This document shows, piece by piece, positions 3 to 12,750 of a stretch of 22,198 nucleotides of DNA. Origin of the DNA: a virus. The number at the start of each line of letters is the position of its first letter. Position 1 is the stretch's first letter. Location of the stretch: the IMG/VR virus record IMGVR_UViG_3300031251_000112, positions 1 through 22,198 of that record. One strand, given 5' to 3'. The notes beneath the pieces were generated by a model, which saw only the letters and a program-made list of their open reading frames with translations, was not told the origin of the DNA and made no database searches. The position numbers were made by a program, and so were the translations under genes.

Positions 3-455
3 GCGCGAGAGAATGAATGGGAAGTCGGAAAGGACTTTGTGCCCCACGATGCCAAGGTTAAAGAATGGGGGACTGATCGGACCCGCGTAGAGACGATGAT
101 CGAGCTTGGTCTCCGCCCACATGTTGTTCCCCGCAGCTCCGACGCTGACGGGCATCAGGCCATTCGTTCCACGCTGCCGCGATGCATCTTCCACCCCCGC
201 ACCGAAGAGCTAGGAATGGCCTCGCTGGAGAGCTATCGGCGGGAGTGGGATGATACTCAGAAGACGTTCAGGGCAAGCGCACTGCACGACTGGTCCTCTC
301 ATGGCGCTAAGGCGTTTCAGTATCTCTCGCAGGCTTGGCACATGGACATCACTGAGCCGAAGAAAGAAACCAATTTCCGCCCCGTCCAAGACATGACGCT
401 TGATGAGATTTGGGACGAGTTTGCGCCTGCGCGTGGCTCACGCGGCAGGATATAA
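3..455 (+). CDS. Terminase large subunit, C-terminal part (partial, truncated by window edge)
   Basis: This is the end of the large terminase subunit, the motor and nuclease that cuts concatemeric phage DNA and drives it into the prohead. The frame is open from base 3, so the start lies left of the window. The visible 150 residues match the RNase H-like nuclease half of the family: an early PHDAK stretch with a probable metal-binding Asp, a TRVETM segment, a LPRC(I)F strand, then YRREWD and HDWSSHGAKAFQYL near the end. In relatives the last motif usually reads SHxADAFRY, so the Lys in place of Asp is slightly unusual, although the HD just before it is kept. Family assignment rests on recalled sequence patterns. 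The gene ends with TAA and is convergent with the reverse-strand HTH gene. Confidence 0.85.
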   Translation, partial: ARENEWEVGKDFVPHDAKVKEWGTDRTRVETMIELGLRPHVVPRSSDADGHQAIRSTLPRCIFHPRTEELGMASLESYRREWDDTQKTFRASALHDWSSHGAKAFQYLSQAWHMDITEPKKETNFRPVQDMTLDEIWDEFAPARGSRGRI

Positions 456-477
456 AGGCATCTGCGGCTGTTGAAAC

Positions 478-492
478 CGGCAAAATATGCCG
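478..492. terminator. Small hairpin between convergent genes
   Basis: A 5-bp stem CGGCA/TGCCG with an AAATA loop sits in the 42-bp gap between the terminase stop and the stop of the reverse-strand HTH gene. There is no strong T-run, so a terminator role is a weak inference from its position. Confidence 0.25.
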
Positions 493-497
493 AATTG

Positions 498-734
498 CTA
501 CCGCTCAGATATCTGATTTTCAGGAGATGGCCCGGTAACTTCCGGTAAAACATCTCCATATGGAGGCAAGTTCATCGCAATAGCCGAGCACGCCAGCGCG
601 ACATAGCGCGGGATACGCGACCAGCCGGTTTCATAGGCGTGGTATCCGTTAGGGGATAGGCCTAGGGCAAGCGCGGCCTCTGTTTTGTTGAGGTTCATGC
701 GCTCGCGCCATTGTTTGAGGGTGGTGGGGGTCAT
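498..734 (-). CDS. Small HTH (Xre/Cro-like) transcriptional regulator
   Basis: A 78-residue protein whose first ~55 residues look like a Xre/Cro-type helix-turn-helix: TLKQWRERMNLNKTEAALALGLSPNGYHAYETGWSRIP, with helix 2 NKTEAALALG and a recognition helix around SPNGYHAYETG. The remaining C-terminus is short and Pro-rich, so there is no room for a large dimerisation or peptidase domain as in CI or LexA-like repressors. It is the last gene of a three-gene leftward cassette; its ATG overlaps the stop of the preceding gene (ATGA), which suggests translational coupling. It probably binds the repeated dyad upstream of the cassette promoter and controls its own operon, but that is inferred. No strong Shine-Dalgarno site is visible. 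Confidence 0.75.
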   Translation of the reverse strand: MTPTTLKQWRERMNLNKTEAALALGLSPNGYHAYETGWSRIPRYVALACSAIAMNLPPYGDVLPEVTGPSPENQISER

Positions 735-949
735 GGGCGCATCTTTTTTGGTTGCATAAATCTGTCTGAATCATATCCGTCTAACCCGCGCCGTTCGGCT
801 TCTTGGAATTGTGCCATTTCAAACTCTATCCGGCATCTAAGTGCGTCGACGTCTTTTTGCGCTTCGATAGCCCGGCGCTCTAACGCTGTCAGATAGGCGT
901 GGCTGTTTTTTAGACATTCTTCGTGCCAAGCCATTGGCATCTTGCTCAT
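731..949 (-). CDS. Small conserved phage protein, charged helical
   Basis: A 72-residue protein beginning MSKMPMAWHEECLKN, followed by a long charged helix (about residues 18-55, LERRAIEAQKDVDALRCRIEFEMAQFQEAERRG) and a short DGYDSDRF tail. I recognise this as a small, widespread phage protein type of unknown function (same MxWHEECLKN start and coiled-coil-like body), but cannot name it. It is the middle gene of the leftward cassette, with a purine-rich AGAGAGA ribosome-binding region upstream and a 4-base overlap with the downstream HTH gene. Confidence 0.65.
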   Translation of the reverse strand: MSKMPMAWHEECLKNSHAYLTALERRAIEAQKDVDALRCRIEFEMAQFQEAERRGLDGYDSDRFMQPKKMRP

Positions 950-972
950 CTGTCTCTCTCTGTAAGGAATGG

Positions 973-988
973 AGGGGCCGAAGCCCCT
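973..988 (-). promoter_or_regulatory. UUCG hairpin inside the leftward cassette
   Basis: On the reverse strand AGGGGC-TTCG-GCCCCT forms a perfect 6-bp stem with a stable UUCG tetraloop just after the stop of the first cassette gene. No T-run follows, so it more likely stabilises or punctuates the mRNA between genes than terminates transcription. Confidence 0.45.
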
Positions 989-993
989 TGGTG

Positions 994-1221
994 TTAGATT
1001 TTGACGCTACCAGTCCACCCATCGTTTCTTGTATAGAAGCCTTTACGCTGAAGGCCCGCGAGAGTTGACGCAAACGTCCGGCCTGGCATTGTCGCAAGCG
1101 GAGCGTCAGACGCTTGAGCGCTCAAAAGACAAACAGTCGCCCAGCCATCAATCGGGTTCTTGGCTACGGTGCGAAGGCCTTCGAGAACTTTAACTTGAAG
1201 TGGCGTTAATTCAGTGGCCAT
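994..1221 (-). CDS. Hypothetical small phage protein
   Basis: A 75-residue protein, first gene of the leftward cassette. It opens MATELTPLQVKVLEGLRTVA and continues with alternating helical stretches and a C-terminal GFYTRNDGWTGSVKI that could be the wing of a winged-helix fold; that is only a resemblance and no function is claimed. The start is supported by GGAG seven bases before the ATG on the reverse strand and by a good sigma70-type promoter about 30 bases further upstream. Confidence 0.6.
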   Translation of the reverse strand: MATELTPLQVKVLEGLRTVAKNPIDGWATVCLLSAQASDAPLATMPGRTFASTLAGLQRKGFYTRNDGWTGSVKI

Positions 1222-1247
1222 TTGCTTACTCCGTTGTTGATGCCCTT

Positions 1248-1275
1248 ATGATACGCATATTTGCGATAGAGTCAA
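1248..1275 (-). promoter_or_regulatory. Sigma70-type promoter of the leftward cassette
   Basis: Read on the reverse strand: -35 TTGACT (1275-1270), a 16-base spacer, -10 TATCAT (1253-1248), about 27 bases before the ATG of the first cassette gene. The spacer contains one complete copy of the CGCATATTTGCG dyad, so a protein bound there would block RNA polymerase directly. Confidence 0.65.
1254..1265. promoter_or_regulatory. Operator-like dyad, copy 1
   Basis: CGCATATTTGCG is a CGCA-N4-TGCG dyad located exactly in the spacer of the leftward promoter. An identical copy lies 32 bp to the right (three helical turns). Likely binding site for the cassette's HTH protein; the protein-site pairing is inferred. 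Confidence 0.55.
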
Positions 1276-1285
1276 TAAGAATAAT

Positions 1286-1297
1286 CGCATATTTGCG
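1286..1297. promoter_or_regulatory. Operator-like dyad, copy 2
   Basis: Second exact copy of CGCATATTTGCG, 10 bp upstream of the leftward -35 box and 24-35 bp before the first rightward gene. A further TTTGCG half-site occurs at 1304-1309. The in-phase 32-bp spacing would suit cooperative binding. I do not see a convincing rightward promoter overlapping this copy. Confidence 0.55.
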
Positions 1298-1320
1298 GAA
1301 AAGTTTGCGAGGTCGGAACG

Positions 1321-1521
1321 ATGGCCGGTCACACTCCAAAACCGCAGCGGCCTGAAGACCTCGCAAAACCCATTGAAGGCGGCGATCTTCAGGATGGAAT
1401 GCTTGTGCATTTCAATGCTGAAGCTCCGAAGGCTGACGCCAATGTCGAGGCGCAAATCAAGCGCGAAACGAATTGGCAATTGCGAGATTTGATCCGGCGC
1501 GACCGTGGGGAGCCTCGTTGA
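1321..1521 (+). CDS. Hypothetical small phage protein
   Basis: A 66-residue, polar and highly charged protein (MAGHTPKPQRPEDLAKP..., ending RRDRGEPR) that I do not recognise. It is the first rightward gene after the operator region, preceded by a weak GAGG-containing ribosome-binding region. The next gene's ATG begins one base after its stop. It starts a chain of tightly packed small genes leading to the portal gene. Confidence 0.5.
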   Translation: MAGHTPKPQRPEDLAKPIEGGDLQDGMLVHFNAEAPKADANVEAQIKRETNWQLRDLIRRDRGEPR

Positions 1522-1522
1522 T

Positions 1523-1717
1523 ATGACCCGCACCCAAATCACCAACGATCCCGACTGGCCGACGCCGCGCTCCTTTGACGAGCGTGTGACTGAAGAGATG
1601 GTCGATCGCGCCTATGCCGTCCTCTATCCGGTCGAGAGCTGGCCGGATCGGCTTATCGCCACGGCCCGGGTCCGCGTTCGGACTGCGCTCGAGGCGGCGT
1701 GGTCTGCGGCGCAGTGA
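1523..1717 (+). CDS. Hypothetical small phage protein
   Basis: A 64-residue protein, MTRTQITNDPDWPTPRSFDERV..., with an amphipathic C-terminal half (PDRLIATARVRVRTALEAAWSAAQ). The ATG at 1523 is preferred over an in-frame GTG at 1505 because GGGGAG lies 10-15 bases upstream and the ATG follows the previous stop by one base. No domain recognised. Confidence 0.5.
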   Translation: MTRTQITNDPDWPTPRSFDERVTEEMVDRAYAVLYPVESWPDRLIATARVRVRTALEAAWSAAQ

Positions 1718-1720
1718 CGG

Positions 1721-1825
1721 ATGGAAACTGCGGCTGGGATCGTTGCGGCCGTCGGGGGCTGGCTCTTTGGGTTTCTGATCGTTCCGAAGGCGGCGGATCG
1801 CGTGAGGCGATGGATCAGGAACTGA
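1721..1825 (+). CDS. Very small membrane protein (34 residues)
   Basis: ATG three bases after the preceding stop opens a 34-residue frame: an N-terminal hydrophobic stretch (AAGIVAAVGGWLFGFLIVP, about residues 4-22) and a basic tail (RVRRWIRN). One membrane helix with positive residues after it is predicted. There is no clear Shine-Dalgarno site. Its end overlaps the next small gene by 16 bases. It could be a real phage membrane peptide or chance; the packing between coupled genes and the hydrophobic-then-basic layout favour real. Confidence 0.4.
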   Translation: METAAGIVAAVGGWLFGFLIVPKAADRVRRWIRN

Positions 1826-1899
1826 AAAACATCATGGGCGTCTATGGCGCCGTGATCCTTTGCATCTTTATTCTCTGGCTGATCGGTGCATCTCAATGA
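1810..1899 (+). CDS. Very small membrane protein (29 residues)
   Basis: Starting at an internal ATG preceded by TGAGGCG, this frame encodes MDQELKNIMG followed by a strongly hydrophobic helix (VYGAVILCIFILWLIGA, residues 11-27). It overlaps the previous tiny membrane gene in another frame, and its stop overlaps the ATG of the next gene (ATGA). A longer reading of the same frame from 1699 would prepend a Cys/Gly-rich stretch with no coding look, so the short form is preferred. Function unknown; holin-like peptides are one possibility, without direct support. Confidence 0.45.
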   Translation: MDQELKNIMGVYGAVILCIFILWLIGASQ

Positions 1900-6472: not shown

Positions 6473-7745
6473 ATGGCATTCCCAAATCTCTCCGAAATTG
6501 TCACCACGACGCTTCGAAATCGAACCGGCGTGCTGGCAAATAACTTTTCGCGGAACAACGCGCTTATTCGGCGCTTGAATACAAGAGGGCGAGTAAAGAC
6601 GTTCTCCGGCGGCCGGTCAATTGTTCAAGAATTGGCCTATGCTAACAACCAAACTTTCCAGTGGTGAGCAAATACGCCACTTAATCGGGTGAATTCGGTG
6701 AAACTCTCTAATCTATACTTAGAGACAATACCGAGCCAAGCTGCGCATGTAGGGTGAAAACCTCAGGGGCGCAGAAGGTGTAACGACTAGGCCTTGACGA
6801 AAGAATAATAGGCCCACGAGCGCCCGACGCTCTTATGAGCGAAGATATAGTCTGAGCTGCATGGTGACATGCAGAAGCGGTCCATAAACAGTTCCGCGAT
6901 AACAATCTGATTCCGGCTACCAAACCTTGAATATCGCGCCGTCTCAGACGTTTACTGCGGCGGAATTCCCGATCCGGCAGGCCGCTCTTGCGGTTTCCAT
7001 TTCGGGCCTCGAGGAACTCCAGAACTCAGGCGAAGAAGCCATCATCGATTTGCTTGAATCGCGGATCGAGAATGGCGAAGATACTTTCCTCAACGGCTTG
7101 TCTCTCGCCATGTACGGCGACGGCAGCGTGACGGGAACGATCAACGGCCTCGCGAACCTTGTCGCCAACACGCCGACTTCCGGCGTGATCGGCGGAATCG
7201 ATCGTGCGACATGGCTTTTCTGGCGTAACATCGCCTATTCTGCGGTGACGAATGGCGGCGCGCCGGCGACGAGCGCCAATATTCAGCACTACATGAACTC
7301 GCTGTGGAAGCAGCTGGTTCGCGGGCGCGATATGCCCGATCTGATTGTTGCGGACGGCAATTACTGGCAGCTTTATCTTGAAAGCCTCCAGGCGATCCAG
7401 CGCATTCAGACGGAAAGCCGCGCGCCGGACATGGCGGAAATCGGCTTCGAAACGCTCAAATATATGAGCGCCGATGTTGTGCTTGATGGCGGCTTCCAGG
7501 GCTTCTCGACTGATCCGTTCACTCCCGATATTTCGGGCGGTTCGGCGGTCGGCGGCGCTCCGGCGAATACTCTTTATATGCTCAACACGAAATATTTGCA
7601 TTGGCGGCCGCACGCCGATCGCGACATGGTTCCGTTGGACCCCAACAGGTTCTCCGTCAATCAGGATGCGATGGTGCGCCTGCTTGGCTGGGCGGGAAAT
7701 ATGACGCTCTCGTGTGGGTTCCTTCAGGGTGTTCTCACTGCGTAA
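6473..7745 (+). CDS. Major capsid (coat) protein, P22-like, split by a group I intron
   Basis: Exons 6473-6665 and 6910-7745 join to a 342-residue coat protein. Exon 1 reads MAFPNLSEIVTTTLRNRTG...NNQTFQW and exon 2 continues SGYQTLNIAPSQTF, and the T from exon 1 plus AT from exon 2 makes the missing Tyr65, giving the QWYSGY(x)TLNI run expected for this coat family. SISGLEELQNSGEEAIIDLLESRIENG downstream is another family hallmark. Read without splicing, the gene appears as two pieces: a 64-residue ORF ending at TGA 6665-6667, and a false TTG-started ORF from 6927. AAAGG upstream of the ATG serves as ribosome-binding site. A UUCG hairpin follows the stop. Coat subunits build the icosahedral head on the scaffold. 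Confidence 0.92.
6666..6909 (+). ncRNA. Group I self-splicing intron (ORF-less, 244 nt) in the coat gene
   Basis: Core elements: P strand TTCGGTGAAACT (6694-6705), Q AATACCGAGCCAAGC (6727-6741), R GACTA (6785-6789), S AAGATATAGTC (6842-6852). Helices: P1 exon AGTGGT (6660-6665) with GCCACT (6676-6681), ending in the U.G splice-site wobble; P3 6686-6691/6821-6826; P4 6695-6699/6730-6734; P5 6706-6711/6719-6724; P6 6741-6746/6769-6774, with a GAAA-capped inner stem; P7 6785-6789/6848-6852; P8 6828-6832/6837-6841; P9 6857-6863/6868-6874 with a GTGA (GNRA) loop; P9.0 6855-6856/6907-6908 just before terminal G6909. An extra stem between P7 and the 3' strand of P3 (6790-6794/6810-6814) suggests subgroup IA. 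No homing endonuclease is encoded inside. Confidence 0.95.
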
Positions 7746-10693: not shown

Positions 10694-12331
10694 ATGCGCC
10701 TTACCGCACAAGCCCCCCGCCGGCCAAAAATGGTTGTCGCGGAGGGCGTTCCGTTGCCCGCGCCGGTTGGCGGATGGGATGCGATCTCGCCTCTCGCAAA
10801 CATGCCCGTCGATCGAGCGGTGCAGCTTGATAATTGGGTTTGCCGCCCCGGCTGGATAGAGCCTCGGCGTGGCGCCGTTATCCAATCGACGGGCCTCGGC
10901 CAAAGCAATTCCGCTGTTCAAACGCTTATGGCGTTCAACGGGTTCAACGGTTCACGGCAGCTTTTTGGCGTTGCTGCCGGCACGATCTATGATTGCACCT
11001 CGCCCGGAACCGCTGTTCCGACGACGATCACAGGCCTGCGGAATTCGCGCCTGCAATATACGATGTTCTCCAATGCATCGAATATTCAGCATCTCATCGC
11101 TTGCAATGGTGATGATGGCGTTTTCCTTTATGACGGGTCGTCCTGGACATCGGCGGTCATTACCGGAACCGGGATCGACCCGACGAAATTTATTGCGGTC
11201 ACGGCCTATCAGCAGCGGCTTTGGTTCGTTCAAGACAACTCTACTGATGCCGTCTATCTGACGACCATCGGCGGCATCCAGGGCGCGGCGCAGATCTTCC
11301 CGCTTGGTCAGCTCATGACCAAGGGCGGCTATCTCATGGCGATCGGGCGTTGGACGATCGACACGCGACAGACGGTTGATGAATATATCGCCTTCATCAC
11401 CTCGCGCGGCGAAGTCATCGTTTATGCCGGCACCGATCCGACCACGGCTTCGACATGGCAGCTTGTTGGAATCTATCAAATCGGGGCGCCGATCGGGCGC
11501 CGATGCACGCTTAGAATTTCAGGCGATTTGCAGATCATCACGATTGATGGCGTCGTCGGAATGTCCGAGATGCTTTCGACAGATCGCGCCGCGGCGAACA
11601 GGGTCTCCCTGACTTCAATCATCATGAACCAGATGGCGCTAGCCGCGCAGCAATACAAGAACAATTTTGGATGGCAGCTGGTCGAATATCCACTCGGCAC
11701 TTTGGCAATCTTAAACATCCCGATCCAAGAAACCGCATTCCAGATGCAGTTCGTGATGAACACGATCACCGGCGCATGGTCGAGGTTCATCGGCATCGAT
11801 CCAACGACAAATCAGCCGTCGTCAAAGTTTGGGATCAATGCGAATTGTTGGGAAGTTGACGCCGCCGATAACATTTTCTACGGCGGCAACAATGGAACTG
11901 TTTACCAGTGGAATATTGGGTCCGGGGATGGGCCAAACCAGATCTGCTGCATCGTCAAGGGCGCTTACAACAATTTCGGCAACGCGGCGCAATTAAAGCG
12001 ATACACTATGCTGCAGGCGCTGATTACAGCCTCCGCGAGCGTGATCCCCTCGATCGGGATCGATGTTGATTTCAAGAATGCGGCGACACTCTCGACTGAG
12101 CAGCCAGTGATAGGAAACCCCGCACTCTGGAACCAGGTCAAGTGGAACCAGTTCAAATGGGGATCCGCCCCTGGCGTAACGAACAACTGGCTTTCTCCGC
12201 AAGGTCTTGGACACTACGTCTCGATCTGGACGAAGGTGACGACGAAGCAAAACCTCAATTATCCGGCATCGGTTAGCCAGCTTCAGTTGAACGGCTGGAA
12301 TATCACAGCTGAACGAGGGGCGTTCATTTGA
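10694..12331 (+). CDS. Tail hub / DNA-stabilisation protein, P22 gp10-like
   Basis: A 545-residue beta-rich protein: VPLPAPVGGWDAISPLANMP near the start, then DNWVCRPGWIEPRRGA (about residues 47-62), followed by strand-dense sequence typical of gp10-type packaged-DNA stabilisation proteins that close the head channel and carry the tail. The adaptor gene immediately before it supports the call. Its stop overlaps the next ATG (ATGA). The similarity is by pattern and gene order, not by search. Confidence 0.65.
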   Translation: MRLTAQAPRRPKMVVAEGVPLPAPVGGWDAISPLANMPVDRAVQLDNWVCRPGWIEPRRGAVIQSTGLGQSNSAVQTLMAFNGFNGSRQLFGVAAGTIYDCTSPGTAVPTTITGLRNSRLQYTMFSNASNIQHLIACNGDDGVFLYDGSSWTSAVITGTGIDPTKFIAVTAYQQRLWFVQDNSTDAVYLTTIGGIQGAAQIFPLGQLMTKGGYLMAIGRWTIDTRQTVDEYIAFITSRGEVIVYAGTDPTTASTWQLVGIYQIGAPIGRRCTLRISGDLQIITIDGVVGMSEMLSTDRAAANRVSLTSIIMNQMALAAQQYKNNFGWQLVEYPLGTLAILNIPIQETAFQMQFVMNTITGAWSRFIGIDPTTNQPSSKFGINANCWEVDAADNIFYGGNNGTVYQWNIGSGDGPNQICCIVKGAYNNFGNAAQLKRYTMLQALITASASVIPSIGIDVDFKNAATLSTEQPVIGNPALWNQVKWNQFKWGSAPGVTNNWLSPQGLGHYVSIWTKVTTKQNLNYPASVSQLQLNGWNITAERGAFI

Positions 12332-12750
12332 ATCTTCTCTTCGGCCATGACAAGGCAGTCGCTGATTGGGCATCTCAGCAATTCGGCTCGCCTTTGCGAA
12401 ACTGGTATTTCGCGATCGGGTTGATTGATAATGAAGGGCTCTTGAGGGGCGCCGCGTCGTTTCATGATTTCAACGGATCAAACATTGAAATCTGCTTCTA
12501 CGGCCCCGGCGCCATGACGCCTTCTGCGGTTCGCGGGCTTATGAAATTTGCTTTTGTTGAACTGAAGGCCAACCGCATCACGGCCAGAACCCCCCGGCAG
12601 AATAAAGCGGTGATCCGCGCGCTTCCTAAGTTCGGGTTTCGATGCGAGGGCGTTGCAAAGCGCTATTTCGGAGCAACAAAGCGGCTTGACGCAATCATGT
12701 TCGGATTGCTCAAGGCAGATGCACAGAAGCATATCGAGAGGGCGGCATAA
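12328..12750 (+). CDS. GNAT-like acetyltransferase domain protein
   Basis: A 140-residue single-domain protein with the layout of GCN5-related N-acetyltransferases: a beta pair giving LLRGAASFHDFNGSNIEICFYGPGAM, then a helix (SAVRGLMKFAF) and the late strand-helix-strand KANRITARTPRQNKAVIRALPKFGFRCEGVAKRYFG, where NKAVIRALPKFGF mirrors the usual NxxAxxxxxKxGF motif. The acetyl-CoA loop (Q/R-x-x-G-x-G/A) is not clear, so the enzyme may be diverged. It is coupled by ATGA overlap to the gp10-like gene, suggesting virion or late expression. Substrate unknown. Confidence 0.65.
   Translation: MNLLFGHDKAVADWASQQFGSPLRNWYFAIGLIDNEGLLRGAASFHDFNGSNIEICFYGPGAMTPSAVRGLMKFAFVELKANRITARTPRQNKAVIRALPKFGFRCEGVAKRYFGATKRLDAIMFGLLKADAQKHIERAA

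What the first reader, a model, noticed from the sequence alone, without database searches (positions are those of the whole stretch)
6666..6909. Compact ORF-less group I intron inside a phage major capsid gene
All core elements of a catalytic group I intron can be drawn in 244 nt, including a P1 with the U.G splice-site wobble, P7 built from GACTA/TAGTC, P3 CGGGTG/CGCCCG, P9 with a GNRA loop, a 2-bp P9.0 and a terminal G. The predicted boundaries independently restore the coat reading frame at the base and amino-acid level. Phage group I introns are best known from nucleotide-metabolism, polymerase, terminase and lysis genes; one in a P22-type coat gene is, to my knowledge, seldom described. 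The 6790-6820 extension between P7 and P3 points to subgroup IA.
Basis: partly seen in the sequence, partly recalled or inferred. Interest (0 to 1): 0.95.

Follow-up and report, generated by a model that had tools for sequence, protein, structure and literature searches.

The report
Self-splicing intron in phage capsid gene
A 244-base RNA that is predicted to cut itself out of its messenger interrupts the gene for a phage's main shell protein; it belongs to a family of such introns that sits almost only in phage shell genes, in one relative nine times in a single gene.

Summary
The finding holds. Window 6666-6909 matches Rfam's group I intron model (72.9 bits, E=4.8e-17). Removing it joins 6473-6665 to 6910-7745 into an intact 342-aa major head protein (phrog_9953, E=3e-105). 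All 80 relatives compared read the junction residues (Y-S-G, Y-G-G in one) uninterrupted. On a sequence-only alignment of 13 related introns the drawn structure pairs in 95% of cells, with changes on both sides in 36 of 53 pairs. The intron has no ORF. Splicing itself was not observed.

Capsid-gene group I introns are already known (mycobacteriophage LittleE, crAss-like phages), so this is a new member of a known kind. The "P22-type" label is not supported; Mx8-type fits better.

The surroundings are more interesting. The same coat gene is invaded at about 20 sites in related metagenomic phages, with up to nine introns in one gene. Of 96 occurrences of the clade's core motif in IMG/VR, 95 adjoin major-capsid exons from four families, against 56 of 123 introns sharing only a wider core. 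The window intron groups (99/93) with introns at other sites of the gene, one sharing its six-base guide target: consistent with guide-directed movement, not proof.

The parts
6473..6665 (+). 5' exon of the major head (coat) gene, codons 1-64 and first base of codon 65
   Evidence: phrog_9953 E=6.8e-16 on this exon alone; spliced alignment
6666..6909 (+). ORF-less group I intron, 244 nt
   Evidence: RF00028 72.9 bits, E=4.8e-17; covariation; exact restoration of the coat frame
6910..7745 (+). 3' exon of the coat gene, rest of codon 65 to stop
   Evidence: phrog_9953 E=1.8e-78 on 6927-7742 alone
6660..6665 (+). 5' exon target AGUGGU of P1; U6665 forms the splice-site U.G wobble
   Evidence: pairs with GCCACU 6676-6681; AGTGGT occurs once in the coat CDS
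6676..6681 (+). internal guide sequence GCCACU (P1, 3' strand)
6665..6667 (+). in-frame UGA straddling the 5' splice site; unspliced message stops after codon 64
   Evidence: sequence; 20 of 59 mapped introns have a stop at this position against 7 of 118 in the other two frames
6686..6826 (+). P3 (6686-6691/6821-6826)
   Evidence: 96% of cells paired, 2 of 6 pairs change on both sides
6695..6734 (+). P4 (6695-6699/6730-6734) with P5 (6705-6711/6719-6725)
6735..6779 (+). P6 (6735-6737/6777-6779) and P6a (6741-6746/6769-6774)
   Evidence: P6a 6 of 6 pairs covary
6785..6852 (+). P7 (6785-6789/6848-6852), the guanosine-binding helix of group I introns
   Evidence: 3 of 5 pairs covary, 98.5% paired
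6790..6814 (+). P7.1 hairpin between P7 and P3 (subgroup IA-like extension) with the clade motif
   Evidence: 5 of 5 pairs covary; motif scan
6828..6841 (+). P8 with a 4-nt loop; siblings with an ORF carry the endonuclease gene here
6857..6874 (+). P9 with GUGA tetraloop
   Evidence: 6 of 7 pairs covary
6909..6909 (+). terminal (omega) G of the intron; P9.0 = 6854-6855/6906-6907
   Evidence: sequence

Best explanation
6666-6909 is a compact, ORF-less group I self-splicing intron in the major head protein gene of a tailed phage. The coat message is transcribed with it; the RNA folds into the P1-P9 ribozyme, positions the junction by pairing GCCACU with the exon end AGUGGU, uses a free guanosine bound at P7 to cut after U6665, then joins U6665 to A6910 and leaves ending in G6909, restoring Trp64-Tyr65-Ser66. 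Any ribosome on unspliced message stops at the UGA across the 5' splice site before entering the ribozyme. The intron belongs to a clade that sits in major capsid genes and has moved between sites of this gene and between unrelated capsid families. Siblings carry homing endonucleases (GIY-YIG, HNH) in P8; the window copy has none, so it was moved by such an enzyme acting in trans, lost its own, or moved by reverse splicing. Shown computationally: intron identity, boundaries, coat restoration, clade distribution. Inferred: splicing activity and route of movement.
For: RF00028 72.9 bits. Intact 342-aa coat after excision, phrog_9953 E=2.9e-105. 80 of 80 relatives read Y-S-G (Y-G-G in one) uninterrupted at the site. 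95.0% of cells paired against 35-40% when slid; 36 of 53 pairs change on both sides; 0 of 500 shuffles reach any of five measures. The same site is occupied by introns with the same GCCACT guide in L213, L214, L215 and L217. 95 of 96 clade motifs adjoin MCP exons.
Against: No RNA data: splicing is not shown. P10 is at best 3 bp with a gap. The outermost hairpin (P9.1) pairs in only 65% of cells. A single assembled contig carries this exact intron.
Confidence: 0.96

Rival explanations
1. A decayed group I intron: right ancestry but no longer self-splicing, so that the coat gene is broken and the contig is a defective phage or prophage remnant.
For: No ORF and no activity data; some siblings score below Rfam's cut-off.
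Against: Every core helix is intact and the whole model is matched; both exons are open in frame with no other stop in 342 codons and the surrounding head and tail genes have long open frames.
Confidence: 0.03
2. Not an intron: the coat is made as two proteins (codons 1-64 and the ORF from 6927) and the 244 bases are a structured intergenic RNA.
For: A mechanical ORF list gives 6927-7745 as its own ORF.
Against: Residues 65-70 conserved in relatives (YSGYQT) are encoded between 6910 and 6927 ahead of that ORF's start; relatives have one continuous gene; group I boundaries coincide with the exact junction.
Confidence: 0.01
3. Route of movement A: reverse splicing. The free intron RNA re-inserted at another AGUGGU-bearing site and was copied back into DNA.
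For: Best-supported kin (99/93) are introns at sites 105.0, 78.2 and 65.1 of the same gene. The site-105.0 introns have the same target AGUGGU and guide GCCACU, and the L216 105.0 intron is the closest match (170 bits, both 244 nt); the DNA beyond this short stretch differs between the two sites.
Against: The 78.2 and N4-type kin have other targets, so the guide must also have changed. One clade of five 65.1 introns is disfavoured (37.7 log units) but not rejected (p-AU 0.09). No step has been observed.
Confidence: 0.4
4. Route of movement B: DNA-level homing by an endonuclease encoded in a related intron or elsewhere, acting on a similar site; the window copy later lost or never had the gene.
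For: GIY-YIG-like ORFs at sites 19, 23, 25/26 and 58, HNH ORFs at 105.0 and 127.0; homing endonucleases tolerate variant sites (PMC3984707).
Against: The 65.1 and 105.0 DNA sites share little more than the six-base target; no ORF remnant in the window intron.
Confidence: 0.5

Closest known systems
Mycobacteriophage LittleE major capsid gene intron (PMC3706429)
   Same: Probable group I intron in a phage major capsid gene; exon 1 ends in U, intron ends in G; exact restoration of the capsid.
   Different: 819 bp with an endonuclease ORF on the opposite strand, in another phage's capsid gene; splicing proven by RT-PCR and protein sequencing. The window intron is 244 nt, ORF-less and untested.
crAss-like phage MCP introns (Delta and Zeta groups, PMC7886860)
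   Same: Several introns in one phage major capsid gene (five gene fragments in one Zeta genome).
   Different: Other phage order; three of its four intervening segments encode intron-specific protein domains. The relative L213 here has nine introns, mostly ORF-less.
Phage IA2-type introns of T4 (td, nrdD) and of T7-like DNA polymerase genes
   Same: Shared core segments around P4-P5 and P7-P9 in BLAST against isolate phages.
   Different: No isolate phage covers 80% of the window intron; those introns sit in nucleotide-metabolism, polymerase and terminase genes.
Faustovirus E12 MCP gene (PMC6247863)
   Same: Capsid gene with many introns, group I among them, some with GIY-YIG ORFs.
   Different: Giant virus of amoebae; 12 introns of which 5 are group I, the rest spliceosome-like.

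Membership tests
Group I self-splicing intron | Match to the family covariance model above the curated score | tested here: met
   72.9 bits against 50, full model
Group I self-splicing intron | Conserved core P3, P4, P6, P7, P8 supported by covariation | tested here: met
   95.0% of cells paired, 36 of 53 pairs changed on both sides, slid controls 35-40%
Group I self-splicing intron | P1 with U.G at the 5' splice site and a terminal G | tested here: met
   AGUGGU/GCCACU, U6665.G6676, G6909
Group I self-splicing intron | Excision restores a conserved gene product | tested here: met
   342-aa phrog_9953 head protein; 80 of 80 relatives continuous at the site
Group I self-splicing intron | Guanosine-dependent splicing of the RNA | not testable with these tools
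   needs an in vitro transcript or cDNA
Subgroup IA | Extra helix P7.1 between P7 and P3 | tested here: met
   6790-6794/6810-6814, 5 of 5 pairs covary
Subgroup IA | Best score against subgroup covariance models | not testable with these tools
   Rfam holds one undivided model
Mobile (endonuclease-bearing) group I intron | Homing endonuclease ORF inside the intron | tested here: not met
   no open frame over about 40 codons in six frames
   no Pfam hit, no PDB sequence hit up to E=1; structure model of a relative too poor to compare (pLDDT 45). A shared fold is not excluded.
Mx8-type major head protein (phrog_9953) | Full-length profile match | tested here: met
   E=2.9e-105 over residues 1-342; Mx8 head protein 47.5% identical over 100%

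The most novel reading that the evidence does not exclude
The window intron belongs to a group I intron lineage specialised on phage major capsid genes of at least four sequence families, which spreads between sites and families largely by guide-sequence-directed reverse splicing, and builds up in single coat genes to nine copies.
Probability: 0.3. Interest if true: 0.82.

Novelty: new member of a known kind. Interest (0 to 1): 0.62.

Why it matters
The gene for the most abundant virion protein looks like an odd place for introns, yet this gene family is invaded repeatedly, and the intron clade is tied to capsid genes from four families. That makes capsid genes a natural test bed for how group I introns choose and change sites. 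Reverse splicing as a route of movement has no direct experimental support (PMC3984707); here one intron type occupies two sites of one gene that share the six-base guide target, which can be tested directly. It also warns that coat genes of metagenomic phages can be missed or called as fragments.

Tried and rejected
P10 could not be drawn convincingly (3 bp with a 2-nt gap at best). The AlphaFold model of a coat relative was too poor (pLDDT 45), so no fold search was made. The genome-collection scan gave only three MAG contigs with a related coat and no firm host. A narrower sister motif gave two contigs. The tree of all introns is poorly resolved at depth; only the small clade around the window is leaned on. 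Two-gene reading of the coat considered and rejected. L214's region between its 129.1 and 165.2 junctions and L105's first junctions were not resolved reliably by the spliced alignment; counts for those loci are approximate. For several introns of the second lineage the automatic P1 search found only 3-4 bp. The first tree included introns truncated by endonuclease genes; the most divergent were left out of the tested tree.

Full report
OBSERVATION. Rfam's group I intron model matches window 6647-6874 over its whole length with 72.9 bits (gathering score 50, E=4.8e-17), the only Rfam hit in the window. The fold is more stable than all 200 shuffles, z=-4.1.

BOUNDARIES. Removing 6666-6909 gives one 342-aa frame. 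A spliced alignment to a profile of 70 intact relatives plus the window's own spliced protein returns 6666-6909, phase 1 of codon 65; donor U and acceptor G were imposed there. Independent support: P1 (AGUGGU/GCCACU) ends exactly at U6665. All 80 relatives that span the site are continuous across it, Y-S-G in 79 and Y-G-G in one. The junction codon is Tyr65, invariant in an alignment of 28 relatives, so the splice-site U is the fixed first base of a Tyr codon.

STRUCTURE TEST. Thirteen introns from this coat gene, aligned by sequence only, were scored on the window's structure: 95.0% of cells pair (35-40% when partners are slid by 1-3 columns), 36 of 53 pairs have changes on both sides, and none of 500 shuffles reaches any measure. 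P7.1 covaries in 5/5 pairs, P6a 6/6, P9 6/7, P8 4/5, P7 3/5. P9.1 is weak (65% paired).

HOST GENE. The joined protein is phrog_9953, major head protein, E=2.9e-105. It has no Pfam match and no PDB sequence match. Isolate relatives are Bradyrhizobium phage ppBjS10J-1 (52.8%), Stenotrophomonas BUCT555 and Myxococcus Mx8, each matched in a single uninterrupted piece. 'P22-type' is therefore not supported here. Neighbouring genes match a portal protein (phrog_12082), a tail protein (phrog_6013) and a family labelled amidase (phrog_5107).

MECHANISM. By established group I chemistry: guanosine attack after U6665, then exon joining at A6910, intron leaving with G6909. Splicing was not observed. The codon spanning the 5' splice site reads UGA in unspliced RNA; over 59 mapped introns a stop at that first codon occurs in 20, against 7 of 118 in the other two frames. 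I read this as keeping ribosomes out of the ribozyme (inference).

SAME GENE, MANY INTRONS. Related IMG/VR contigs carry introns in this coat gene at about 20 sites. The contig IMGVR_UViG_3300005434_000025 (L213) has nine, at codon.phase 6.2, 26.0, 65.1, 78.2, 122.0, 289.2, 305.2, 320.2 and 335.1, and still spells a full 342-aa coat. A model built from 13 coat-gene introns finds all nine, at E from 6e-75 to 3e-13 (four of the nine, 78.2, 122.0, 320.2 and 335.1, were among the sequences it was built on), and Rfam finds six hits in the gene independently at E<=0.01. L215 has six, L219 five, L217 four, L216 three; L214 about six. The most I found in the literature for a phage capsid gene is five fragments (crAss-like, PMC7886860); Faustovirus, not a phage, has 12 introns of which 5 are group I (PMC6247863). 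The library is partial, so 'most' is not claimed as a record.

ENDONUCLEASES. Siblings at sites 19, 23, 25/26 and 58 carry ORFs with GIY-YIG features (two tested: Pfam PF01541 E=2.2e-6, and E=2.8e-4 just under the curated cut-off); 105.0 and 127.0 carry HNH genes (phrog_374 E about 1e-31); 288.2 carries a gene matching phrog_5046. The window intron has none.

A CAPSID-BOUND CLADE. The motif TGACGAAAGAATAAN(3-8)CCACGAGYGCCC from P7.1 to P3 was scanned over IMG/VR: 94 stretches, 96 occurrences. 95 adjoin a major capsid exon: SU10_MCP 54, phrog_9953 33 (one of these also shows an SU10 match), N4gp56-like (phrog_1357) 7, Phage_capsid_3 1; the last is cut off by the end of the stored piece. 'N4gp56-like' is my reading of the sequence; the tool result is the weaker phrog_1357 major head match, E=3e-8. 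Some contigs are near-duplicates, so 96 occurrences are not 96 independent events. IMG/VR is enriched for contigs with capsid genes, but the contrast lies inside one database. BLAST against isolate phages finds only core fragments, none covering 80% of the intron, in td, nrdD, polymerase and terminase genes.

MOVEMENT. The window intron's starred clade (bootstrap 99, SH-aLRT 93) holds introns at 65.1 (window and L113), 105.0 (L216) and 78.2 (L213); adding an N4-family intron gives 91/87. Sites 65.1 and 105.0 share the target AGUGGU and guide GCCACU, and the L216 105.0 intron is the best BLAST match among the mapped coat-gene introns, both 244 nt. Forcing five 65.1 introns into one clade costs 37.7 log units, p-AU 0.09, not rejected. 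So movement between sites is well supported; its route (reverse splicing or endonuclease) is open.

NOVELTY. A group I intron in a phage capsid gene is known (PMC3706429). This is a new member. The capsid-bound clade and the nine-intron gene were not found described in the searched library.

Noticed in passing
L213 (IMGVR_UViG_3300005434_000025, contig about 3781-7661, minus strand): One coat gene with nine predicted group I introns and ten exons that still spells an intact 342-aa major head protein.
   Followed up: yes
L213 6.2 and 289.2, L215 41.2, L218 124.1, L219 6.2, 288.2 and 318.0, L072 289.2, L214 329.2: A second, divergent lineage of group I introns in the same coat gene, weaker against the model built from the window's kin (about 37-61 bits).
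   Followed up: partly
IMG/VR loci (L226 onward): Among 123 phage introns with a general core but without the clade motif, 56 adjoin one of four major capsid families, so capsid introns look common in metagenomic phages; database bias not excluded.
   Followed up: partly
L113, site 65.1 intron (1027 nt): About 1 kb long at the window's site but with no ORF over 83 codons; may hold a decayed endonuclease gene.
   Followed up: no
window 12328-12750: GNAT-type acetyltransferase (PF13302, E=7e-8) set among tail genes.
   Followed up: no
window 455-1860: About 1.4 kb without a long ORF; only short candidate ORFs on both strands, including a helix-turn-helix-like one at 498-734 on the minus strand; almost no match in the related contigs.
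   Followed up: partly
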